Assembly: GCA_009760855.2 (NCBI GenBank)
Contig: WPIO01000001.1
Location: forward strand, 21,292,501-21,356,500
DNA length: 64,000 bases
Reading direction: 5' to 3'
Origin: Cristatella mucedo
Lineage: Eukaryota > Bryozoa > Phylactolaemata > Cristatellidae
Below, one piece after another: positions 221 through 61,951 of the stretch. The position numbers and the translations under genes are program-made. The notes under the pieces were generated by a model. It was given only the letters and a program-made list of their open reading frames with translations. It was not told the origin of the DNA and ran no database searches. The first letter of the stretch is position 1. Every line of letters starts with the position of its first letter.

Positions 221-331
221 CCGCCTTGCTTTGCTCTGGTATTTGAGAGCCTTTTTCGTGTCTTCTGTTGCATTCCGAACATAGTCTACTGACTGCTGGA
301 CATTGTATTCGATCCTATCTATCATTTCTCC
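221..331 (-). CDS. STX1A: syntaxin coding exon 9 (C-terminal half of SNARE motif)
   Basis: 37 codons: [18 protein letters not shown], then [19 protein letters not shown]. Acceptor CTTTTCAG, donor GTGAGT. The next exon should encode the membrane anchor and is not in the window. Confidence 0.96.
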
Positions 332-3300
332 CTGAAAAGTAAAACGTCCAAACAAGTTCCTCAAAAACAACTACAAGAAAAAGTGGTACCGCTAGTGCTC
401 CTCAAACTGCCGATCCTGTTACTGCAGTAATTTCTTATAAGCTGAGTTTTCCAAAAGGGGGGATCAAGATAATCAATATTGTTGGCAACCAGCGATTTTT
501 TCCACGAGTTTTTATTCTTTGCATAATATCCATTGGTGCTTTCTAACAAGCGTTTGCTTCCTTCCTGCACATTCTCTTAGGGCGAAAAATCCTTGGTCCT
601 AGAGGATTTTCTCCATGACCAACCAACCCTTGATGCCCAAATTTCTTACATTAATCAATTTATTTTGTCTTGTGGTGCACGTACATGGCCACATTCACAA
701 AACAAGTCACACATTCGATCACATATTTTCTTATACATGTATGCTCTCGACTTTCATTATTAAATCGAAAAACCACACAACCCTGACATTGATGCAGCCT
801 GCAAAAAATATCTGCCTTGCCCATTCTAATGAGTATCTGTCCAACCTGCCCTCAGTGTTGGAATGCTACAACAAGACACGAAGTTCTGAATGAGTTTGTT
901 CCTCTAAATAGGCACATCAAAAGTCTTTGTCTAGATGGCCAAAGGGTTATTTCAGAAATTAAACTAGCTAGGACTACCAAGTGCAAGGTTGAGAATGCAC
1001 ACAAAAAATCAGTCCTGTCTGCCCATCAACTGGCATAGATTATGTCAAACCAATCCATGACAGCTACGGCCAAGTCTAGCCTCTGAAAAACAGTGCAAAT
1101 CAATGTGCACAATCTAATTATGCTGACGTCAACTACAATCATCTACTTAACGGCTCTCTGGTAAGCACCTTACCTAGTGATCATTGGGCAATCTAGCCGA
1201 GGTTGTATCTAGCTCCTTTGTCAGTAAAAAAGATAGTTAAGATCAGAGAGCTCACCCTCTAGTTAACATACCCCAAAGGACTCGCCCATCACCCTCTAAC
1301 CCTTGCTTTACTCCAATGTCCTTCTTCAAGCCTGCCACTAATGACCTTATCTCTAAGTTTATTGCCCGGTCTAAGAAGACTACTAGCCCTCTGGATGCCA
1401 TATCTACCATACTGTTTCTGAGACGAACAGATTTGCTGCTACCCTGCATCACTAGCATAATAAACTGGCAAAGCAGTTCAACTAGGTATTAAGGAGCTAA
1501 GCCATGGCAGGCCTGGTAGGCAAGCATAAAAACTTTACTCTATATCCGTTGATCAACTGGAAGCTAACGACGCTCTTTCAGCAAGCAGACATATGGTAAA
1601 ACCTCTGGGATTTTTTAACCAACCTTGCAGCCACACTCATTGCCAGCAGCAGTGGCCTAGTGGCTTTTTTCGGTAGACCACCCAAAATAGACCTGCAATC
1701 TAGTTGAGCCAGAACTAAGGAGCTAGTTAAATTTTTTGCAAGCCACCGTGGTAGACAGTCCCTAATCTTAGATAAGAGTCGGACGTGATGGCTAGCTGTA
1801 GAGGCAGTCTTCCTTACAAAACTTGCATAGTTTAGGCAGTTGTCAAAGATGACATCTAAATTCCGAGCACAGTGTGACACTTGCACCACAGCATCACCTA
1901 TTAGAAGAGTAAAGTCTTCTAGGCCAGCCACACGCTTGGGTGTTCTATGAGTAGCAGTTCCATTGTATCATCGTTAAGTCTAAGGAAACTGGCCGACATC
2001 CAAGATCGCAGGTCTGTAAGTCAAGCATTTAGTTTACCAGTCGCTTCAGCCTATTCCAACGGTGTAAAAAACAAATACAGCTGAGTATCGTCAGCATAAA
2101 AGTGATAGCCGATTGTATGAGCCTGAATCCCTTTTCCCAGAGGTTCAGTATAAATGGAGAACAGCAAAGGACCAAGGATGATCTCTTGTGGGACTCCACA
2201 GGTGACTGGTCAGGTGGATGAAACCTATTTATTAAACCACACAAGACATGGATTGAACACGATCGGACACTATGATTTGAACAATGCCAGTGTTTGCCTG
2301 CCAAACCGATCGTTGTTCTCAATCGTTCAAGTAGAATATTGTGATCACTAGTGTCGAAGGCAGCTGAAAGATCCAACAGCGCTAGAGCAGTGACACTTCT
2401 GTCATCATTGCTGCATAGGATATTGATTCTTTTCATTATGTGCTACAAGCTGCTTACCAATAATATTTTCTAGAATATTTGAGAAAAAAGGAAGCAGGGA
2501 AACTGGGAGATAGTTTGCTAGGACCTCCGAATCCGATATAGGCTTTTCCGGTTTTTTCAGTATCGGCCTAACGATAGCCGATTTGAAGGACTTGGCCACA
2601 ACCCTGTTATCCAGAGAAGCGTTACAAATCTAAAGGCTGGGCTTTGTCTGCTGGTGAAGACCAAAGAGGCGATGGTATGGGTCTTCAGGACACGAACTCT
2701 TTCTTTTCACTGGACTTAATTAAGTTAGCCACATCTCTCGCATGCAGAATCTTCGATGTGAGGAGAAAGCAAGAAGAGATGGAATGCTGAAATGTAAAGG
2801 CGGAGAGAGGAGAGAGAGACGGAGAGATAGATTGAGAGCAACAAAGAGTGAGCAAAAGAAGGAAATGAGAGTGACAGGGAGGAACAGAGGTGAGAGAGAG
2901 ACAGACAGAGAGGGAGACAAAGATACAGACAGACAGACAGAGAGAGAGAGAGAGAGAGAGAGAGAGAGAAAGTTTGTGACATCCCGTCTTGACTTCTGTA
3001 ACTCACTGCTTGCTGACCTACCGGCATTTGCAATCAGGCGATTACAGCTGGTGCAAAACTCCGCAGCTAGGCTTGTCTGTCGTGAGCATCACAGTTGCCA
3101 CATCACACCACTTCTCGCCGACCTGCACTGGCTACCAGTCAAGCAACGGATTGACTTCAAGGTTTTGTCGCTCACTTTTAGGTCACTTCATTCTTTGGCT
3201 CCAGCCTACCTATCAGATCTACTCCCCCACCAGGCCAAGCATCGTACCACCTGCTTTTCGGAATCCAACAGTTTACCAATATCTCGTACAAATCTCAAAT

Positions 3301-61195: not shown

Positions 61196-61252
61196 CTTCC
61201 TAATCTGTTGCTTAGGTCAAAGCAATGCTGCCTCAGTGACAACTGATGCGAA

Positions 61253-61951
61253 ATGAACTCCGGCTTATCTTTTTTCCTGCCTAAGTCGGTGGTTCATCGG
61301 AAAGCCATATTCGGTTGTGGATTTTGCCATCAATACAGCTGTCAAAATGCATCACTATTTAGCCTTCGGCGATACAGCTCTCGGACATCTGCAACGAGAT
61401 ACTATGATGTTCTTGGCCTTACACCAAGTGCCACCCAAAGTCAGATCAAGGATTCTTTCTATAGACTGTCCAAAATATATCACCCAGATGTGAATAAGAG
61501 TGACAGTGCTCAGGTGATGTTCCAGGAGTTGTCGCAGGCATATGAGGTGCTGGGCAACAAAAGAAACCGCAAACTATATGATCGTGGCCTTTTGAATCCG
61601 ATGGACCCGAGGTCGAACCATCATGCAAGTAGCGACGTGGAGGATGCTACCGAAGAAACTTTTTCTGCAAAGGGAACGTTCTCTTCTAAGAGGAGAAATC
61701 CCATTCCGACTGGAAGGTCTCGCGTATACAACTTCGACGAGTTCTACCAGCAGCACTACGGCGATGCCATAAAGCGAGCTGCGTCGGCACGAGAGAATAA
61801 TACTACTGAGGACCTGCGAACGCTTACCGAGGCTACAAAGAGGTTACACAAGTGGCATGTATTGTCTGTATGCATCATCGGTTTGATCGCACTGATATAC
61901 CCGTCGTTTGAAAGGAAAGGCAAAACAGAAGAAATCAAAAAGACGCAATGA
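61253..61951 (+). CDS. DNAJC30: DNAJC30, mitochondrial J-domain protein (single exon)
   Basis: A 232-aa uninterrupted frame. Residues 1-47 are Arg/Ser-rich with little acid (SLFSLRRYSSRTSAT), like a mitochondrial presequence. The J domain spans about 49-113 (RYYDVLGLTPSATQSQIKD) with the catalytic HPD at 77-79. A hydrophobic segment near 201-219 (WHVLSVCIIGLIALIYPSF) is a single membrane span. This layout, length and lack of introns match vertebrate DNAJC30 (human 226 aa), an inner-membrane protein linked to ATP synthase and complex I repair. The divergent BUD23 neighbour supports orthology. The first in-frame ATG is used; an upstream ATG at 61246 opens a short overlapping frame. Another mitochondrial DNAJ is possible but unlikely given length and context. 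Confidence 0.94.
   Translation: MNSGLSFFLPKSVVHRKAIFGCGFCHQYSCQNASLFSLRRYSSRTSATRYYDVLGLTPSATQSQIKDSFYRLSKIYHPDVNKSDSAQVMFQELSQAYEVLGNKRNRKLYDRGLLNPMDPRSNHHASSDVEDATEETFSAKGTFSSKRRNPIPTGRSRVYNFDEFYQQHYGDAIKRAASARENNTTEDLRTLTEATKRLHKWHVLSVCIIGLIALIYPSFERKGKTEEIKKTQ

What the first reader, a model, noticed from the sequence alone, without database searches (positions are those of the whole stretch)
221..61951. Ancient DNAJC30-BUD23-syntaxin 1 gene block (Williams-Beuren region linkage) in an invertebrate
All three genes can be rebuilt from exons here, in the order syntaxin, BUD23, DNAJC30 with nothing else recognised between them. In human 7q11.23 the same three are consecutive (DNAJC30, BUD23, STX1A). 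Retention across such divergent animals, despite introns swollen by repeats, suggests very old linkage, perhaps kept by shared regulation. Gene identities are read from sequence; the human order is from memory.
Basis: partly seen in the sequence, partly recalled or inferred. Interest (0 to 1): 0.9.

Follow-up and report, generated by a model that had tools for sequence, protein, structure and literature searches.

The report
Syntaxin-1, BUD23, DNAJC30 gene block
Three unrelated genes that sit side by side in the human Williams-Beuren syndrome region also sit side by side in this distant animal, which points to a very old gene neighbourhood of a kind already known from other gene pairs.

Summary
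On the minus strand lie 9 exons of a syntaxin-1 gene (23144-221; the last, membrane-anchor exon is beyond the window) and all 11 exons of BUD23 (57610-31181, 280 aa). On the plus strand DNAJC30 is a single exon (61253-61951, 232 aa). The frames stay open across the splices. Identity rests on PDB matches (STX1A 334 bits, human BUD23 410 bits), Pfam WBS_methylT, and a match to recalled human DNAJC30 beyond the J domain. No other gene showed in the 39 ORFs tested between them. Human order DNAJC30-BUD23-STX1A is printed.

Inherited linkage is by far the best reading. BUD23 and DNAJC30 are head-to-head, as in human; syntaxin-1 points the same way as BUD23, unlike human (human strands recalled). 'Shared regulation' is untested; the sequence offers only CpG enrichment at the BUD23 start. 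The species, and so the age of the linkage, could not be established: no animal genome collection could be searched. Ancient syntaxin-1 microsynteny (Ran-Stx1) is already published, so this is a new member of a known kind.

The parts
221..23144 (-). Syntaxin-1 gene, 9 coding exons: 23144-23112, 18527-18423, 11129-11030, 6767-6693, 5457-5384, 4555-4447, 4232-4159, 4009-3872, 331-221; last (membrane-anchor) exon outside the window
   Evidence: tblastn, splice sites and open 273-aa frame; PDB best hits Syntaxin-1A, 334 bits; Pfam Syntaxin and SNARE
31181..57610 (-). BUD23 gene (18S rRNA m7G methyltransferase), 11 coding exons, complete: 57610-57566, 57481-57444, 52327-52232, 45852-45770, 41371-41275, 39455-39359, 37326-37276, 37048-36963, 35899-35795, 34131-34042, 31235-31181
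   Evidence: human BUD23 410 bits over residues 3-280; Pfam WBS_methylT above cut-off
61253..61951 (+). DNAJC30 gene, single coding exon, 232 aa: basic N-terminus, J domain with HPD, YNFDEFYQQHYGD motif, C-terminal hydrophobic segment
57611..61252 (.). Head-to-head gap between BUD23 and DNAJC30 start codons (3642 bp): CpG-richest next to BUD23, CpG-poor at 59500-60899, with repeat copies at 58097-58476 and 61063-61175
22700..26699 (.). CpG-rich, partly G+C-rich stretch around and upstream of syntaxin-1 exon 1 (probable promoter region, inferred)

Best explanation
This is an inherited block of three neighbouring genes, syntaxin-1, BUD23 and DNAJC30, the same neighbours as human STX1A, BUD23 and DNAJC30 at 7q11.23. 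Shown here: gene identities, adjacency, and the head-to-head arrangement of BUD23 and DNAJC30. Inferred: the BUD23-DNAJC30 pair is the rigid core, kept because the two were transcribed in opposite directions from one promoter region (loss of either gene impairs mitochondrial energy production in mice, as stated in PMC10298715); repeats have since pushed DNAJC30 about 3.6 kb away, and the CpG-rich stretch beside BUD23 is the remnant of that promoter. Syntaxin-1 stayed next door through slow rearrangement rather than a fixed shared promoter, since its strand relative to BUD23 differs from human (recalled).
For: Open gene models, complete for BUD23 and DNAJC30. Best PDB matches STX1A, BUD23 and WBSCR18/DNAJC30. 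Syntaxin closest to fly Syx1A (65.2%) and human STX1B/1A (62.7/60.5%), lower to STX2, STX3 and STX4 (53.5, 51.7, 40.1%, recalled references). The DNAJC30 match extends past the J domain (40.6% over 143 columns, 84.7 bits, against 57.8 bits for DNAJC4, both recalled). Random adjacency about 5e-9. Shared repeats in 5 of 10 pairs of five segments, and no N. CpG observed/expected is highest next to BUD23: 0.92-1.32 in windows over 57000-58399, 0.73-0.88 over 58250-59649, 0.33-0.52 over 59500-60899; window mean 0.68.
Against: No transcript or chromatin data. The 3.6-kb gap with repeats could mean that DNAJC30 now has its own promoter; CpG observed/expected is also 1.08 at 61500-61899, inside the DNAJC30 exon, and the decline across the gap is gradual. 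The CpG-rich stretch near 58000-58399 overlaps a repeat. Human strands are recalled. The WBSCR18 J domain beats other J domains by only 0.5 bit. No second invertebrate could be examined. The confidence given is for the inherited block; the promoter cause alone I put at about 0.4.
Confidence: 0.75

Rival explanations
1. The three genes are neighbours by descent, but nothing keeps them together: the lineage simply rearranges slowly, and the block is passive inertia. (This shares the inherited-block part with the best explanation and differs on the cause.)
For: The syntaxin strand relation differs from human (recalled), and distances have been inflated freely (introns sum to 22105 and 25587 bp), which shows no tight constraint on spacing.
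Against: The head-to-head pairing of BUD23 and DNAJC30 is retained (human strands recalled); the nearest published case, Ran-Stx1, is reported in a sea anemone, a limpet, an acorn worm, amphioxus and vertebrates.
Confidence: 0.4
2. The linkage arose independently in this lineage and in vertebrates.
For: No intermediate genome was examined here; syntaxin-1 has the other orientation (human recalled).
Against: Probability of about 5e-9 for the exact triple in a random order, and the divergent pair is also oriented alike (human recalled).
Confidence: 0.04
3. The window is an assembly join that puts unrelated pieces side by side.
For: Long repeats in introns and gaps could mislead an assembler; the last 2.8 kb with DNAJC30 shares no repeat with the four other segments, and the syntaxin-BUD23 gap shares none with the BUD23-DNAJC30 gap.
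Against: No N; repeat copies link the syntaxin region with the BUD23 region (longest hit 715 columns, 86.9%), the syntaxin region with the BUD23-DNAJC30 gap (380 columns, 84.2%) and the BUD23 region with that gap (377 columns, 94.4%); BUD23 spans 26 kb intact; the joined genes are precisely the human neighbours.
Confidence: 0.03

Closest known systems
Human 7q11.23 Williams-Beuren region, VPS37D-DNAJC30-BUD23-STX1A
   Same: The same three genes consecutive (order printed in a table of PMC10502022, passages read); BUD23 and DNAJC30 head-to-head (human strands recalled)
   Different: Syntaxin-1 lies on the same strand as BUD23 here and on the opposite strand in human (recalled); distances are swollen by repeats; other neighbours lie outside the window or were not recognised
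Ran-Stx1 ancient microsyntenic pair (Irimia et al. 2012, not held; as described in Coppola et al. 2018, PMC6177115, passages read)
   Same: An old neighbour of the same syntaxin-1 gene, reported in sea anemone, limpet, acorn worm and amphioxus, and with Stx2/Stx3 in vertebrates
   Different: Ran gave no match in this window; it could lie beyond the syntaxin 3' end, outside the window. The main text of PMC6177115 has no occurrence of BUD23 or WBSCR22

Membership tests
Syntaxin-1 (STX1/2/3 group) | Habc domain plus SNARE motif, closer to STX1 than STX4 or other Qa-SNAREs | tested here: met
   Pfam Syntaxin and SNARE above cut-off; the top 8 PDB rows are Syntaxin-1A (334-303 bits), then squid s-syntaxin 232 (180-aa chain) and a chain named Syntaxin1 159; SSO2 67; Syntaxin 13 41 (71-aa fragment); 60-65% to STX1A/1B/Syx1A against 40% to STX4 (7-row tree, references recalled)
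Syntaxin-1 (STX1/2/3 group) | C-terminal membrane anchor | not testable with these tools
   The last exon lies beyond the left edge of the window
BUD23 | SAM methyltransferase domain plus WBS_methylT C-terminal domain | tested here: met
   PF12589 65.6 bits (cut-off 21) and Methyltransf_11 51.1 (cut-off 21.2); 410 bits to human BUD23
DNAJC30 | J domain with HPD | tested here: met
   Pfam DnaJ 73.9 bits, cut-off 27.8; YHPD
DNAJC30 | DNAJC30-type region after the J domain and C-terminal hydrophobic segment | tested here: met
   NFD-FYQ-HYG motif aligned to recalled human DNAJC30; most hydrophobic 19-residue stretch at 201-219. One reference, recalled; no tree
Inherited DNAJC30-BUD23-STX1A block | Three genes consecutive | tested here: met
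   no Pfam family at cut-off in 39 selected ORFs of the two gaps; human order
Inherited DNAJC30-BUD23-STX1A block | Same relative strands as human throughout | tested here: inconclusive
   In the window BUD23/DNAJC30 are divergent and syntaxin is in tandem with BUD23; against human strands from memory the first agrees and the second does not, but the human strands were not retrieved
Inherited DNAJC30-BUD23-STX1A block | Present in other invertebrates | not testable with these tools
   Protein database off, the genome search unreachable, no scan of metagenome contigs allowed; the other collections hold prokaryotes, phages, plasmids and viruses

The most novel reading that the evidence does not exclude
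An ancestral animal block RAN-STX1-BUD23-DNAJC30 existed before the vertebrate genome duplications. The copies then lost different members: the STX1A copy kept BUD23 and DNAJC30 (human 7q11.23), while the STX2 and STX3 copies kept RAN. The BUD23-DNAJC30 divergent promoter would be the conserved core, so part of the Williams-Beuren gene order would date back to early animals.
Probability: 0.35. Interest if true: 0.5.

Novelty: new member of a known kind. Interest (0 to 1): 0.35.

Why it matters
If the block recurs in cnidarians or sponges, it would show that a piece of a human disease region has kept its gene neighbours since early animals, and would give a simple place to test whether a shared BUD23-DNAJC30 promoter holds gene order. 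It would also join the published Ran-Stx1 pair into one testable ancestral block.

Tried and rejected
STX4, STX2 or STX3 as the identity of the syntaxin: lower identity. DNAJC4 as the identity of the J protein: fewer bits, and its match to the C-terminal half is not significant (E 3.5). RAN inside the window: no match better than E 1.2. Rfam at gathering score: 0 matches. tRNA: 0. A spliced 5' leader joining DNAJC30 to the BUD23 CpG-rich stretch: the best donor (58208, 8 of 9 consensus letters) lies inside a repeat and the best acceptor (61216) has 14 of 18 pyrimidines; no control was run, so it is left open.

A printed account of the triple in invertebrates: none was seen in ten searches of the open library. 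The listings were cut at 20 of 316, 35 and 46 papers, and one search listed 14 of 15. Passages of six papers were read; the rest were seen as titles and starts of abstracts. Irimia et al. 2012 is not held, so its tables were not seen and may list this pair.

Full report
What is there. The window holds a syntaxin-1 gene and a BUD23 gene on the minus strand and a DNAJC30 gene on the plus strand. A tblastn with recalled human STX1A and BUD23 found most of their exons. I placed exon ends at splice sites and joined them: syntaxin-1 gives 273 aa from 9 exons, with the membrane-anchor exon off the left edge, and BUD23 gives a complete 280 aa from 11 exons. Syntaxin exons 1 and 2, which tblastn missed, were found by motif; exon 1 ([11 protein letters not shown], 23144-23112) lies in a CpG-rich stretch. 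DNAJC30 is one open exon of 232 aa. The introns sum to 22105 bp in syntaxin (8 introns) and 25587 bp in BUD23 (10 introns); the gap from the syntaxin ATG to the end of BUD23 is 8036 bp and the gap between the BUD23 and DNAJC30 start codons is 3642 bp.

Identity. The syntaxin's top 8 PDB rows are Syntaxin-1A (334 to 303 bits); yeast Sso2 scores 67 and a syntaxin 13 fragment 41. None of the 40 rows is named STX2, STX3 or STX4, so I compared with recalled sequences: fly Syx1A 65.2%, STX1B 62.7%, STX1A 60.5%, STX2 53.5%, STX3 51.7%, STX4 40.1%. A 7-row tree groups it with fly Syx1A (100/99); the other 3 inner branches were not resolved. PMC6177115 states that Stx1 is the only member of the Stx1/2/3 group in non-vertebrate animals (passages read), which fits. 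Fly and human STX1A are 70.1% identical, more than either is to this protein, so the lineage is early-branching or fast; I cannot say which. BUD23 matches human BUD23 over residues 3-280 (410 bits; 63.3% over 283 columns) and has the WBS_methylT domain. The J protein's best PDB match is WBSCR18/DNAJC30, but only by 0.5 bit over other J domains; the stronger evidence is the match beyond the J domain to recalled human DNAJC30, including YNFDEFYQQHYGD against FNFDAFYQAHYGE, and a C-terminal hydrophobic segment.

Surroundings. Twenty-five ORFs in or at the edge of the syntaxin-BUD23 gap, 14 of the BUD23-DNAJC30 gap and 9 right of DNAJC30 were scanned with Pfam. None of the 48 reached a family cut-off; 6 had one sub-threshold match each (E 0.0099-0.081). 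These are selected ORFs: 15 of 20 of at least 90 aa in the first gap, 13 of 31 at 27200-31180, 14 of 34 other than DNAJC30 in the second gap, 9 of 15 on the right. RAN gave no match. Of four intronic ORFs tested, three carry reverse transcriptase matches, one of them above the cut-off. The window has no N. Of 10 pairs among five segments, 5 share repeats (syntaxin region with its neighbour gap, with BUD23 and with the BUD23-DNAJC30 gap; BUD23 with both gaps; up to 94.4% identity) and 5 share none, among them the 4 pairs with the last 2.8 kb.

Is it chance? With 20,000 genes in random order the exact triple has a probability of about 5e-9, and about 1e-4 for any human triple. The human order VPS37D, DNAJC30, BUD23, STX1A is printed in PMC10502022 (passages read). 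So the linkage is almost certainly inherited.

Orientation. Here BUD23 and DNAJC30 are divergent, and syntaxin-1 follows BUD23 on the same strand. In human, as I recall, DNAJC30 is minus, BUD23 plus and STX1A minus. If so, the divergent pair is kept and syntaxin-1 is flipped, which argues for BUD23-DNAJC30 as the constrained core and against a fixed BUD23-STX1 regulatory arrangement.

Mechanism. Most likely, in my view: a shared divergent promoter once tied BUD23 to DNAJC30. CpG observed/expected is 0.92-1.32 in windows over 57000-58399, 0.73-0.88 over 58250-59649 and 0.33-0.52 over 59500-60899, and a repeat copy ends 77 bp before the DNAJC30 ATG. Loss of either gene impairs mitochondrial energy production in mice (as stated in PMC10298715, passages read). 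Against: CpG is also high in the DNAJC30 exon (1.08), the decline is gradual, the gap is long, and there are no transcripts. I give the promoter part about 0.4; inertia is the main rival.

Known or new. Ran-Stx1 is a published ancient pair. Ten searches of the open library showed no account of the DNAJC30-BUD23-STX1 triple in invertebrates (four listings were incomplete), and the main catalogue paper is not held. The bold reading joins both into a RAN-STX1-BUD23-DNAJC30 ancestral block divided among vertebrate duplicates.

Noticed in passing
18423 and 3872 (minus strand): Two of nine syntaxin exons are followed by GC rather than GT donors (GCGAGT, GCAAGT).
   Followed up: partly
9025-10386 minus; 42123-42890 minus; 49658-50536 plus; 54747-55403 plus: LINE-type reverse transcriptase fragments in introns; of these 4 ORFs 1 exceeded the RVT_1 cut-off, 2 were below it and 1 had no match.
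   Followed up: partly
58097-58476, 40645-41023, 41712-42088, 3311-3672, 56308-56670: A repeat of about 380 bp with (AAT)n runs occurs several times in both orientations, up to 94% identical.
   Followed up: no
25400-26699: A second CpG-rich, G+C-rich stretch upstream of syntaxin exon 1, with a 21-bp tandem repeat at 26037-26077; no Pfam family at cut-off in the ORFs tested there.
   Followed up: partly
59575-59646: Three tandem copies of a 24-bp unit, 95% matches, in the BUD23-DNAJC30 gap.
   Followed up: no
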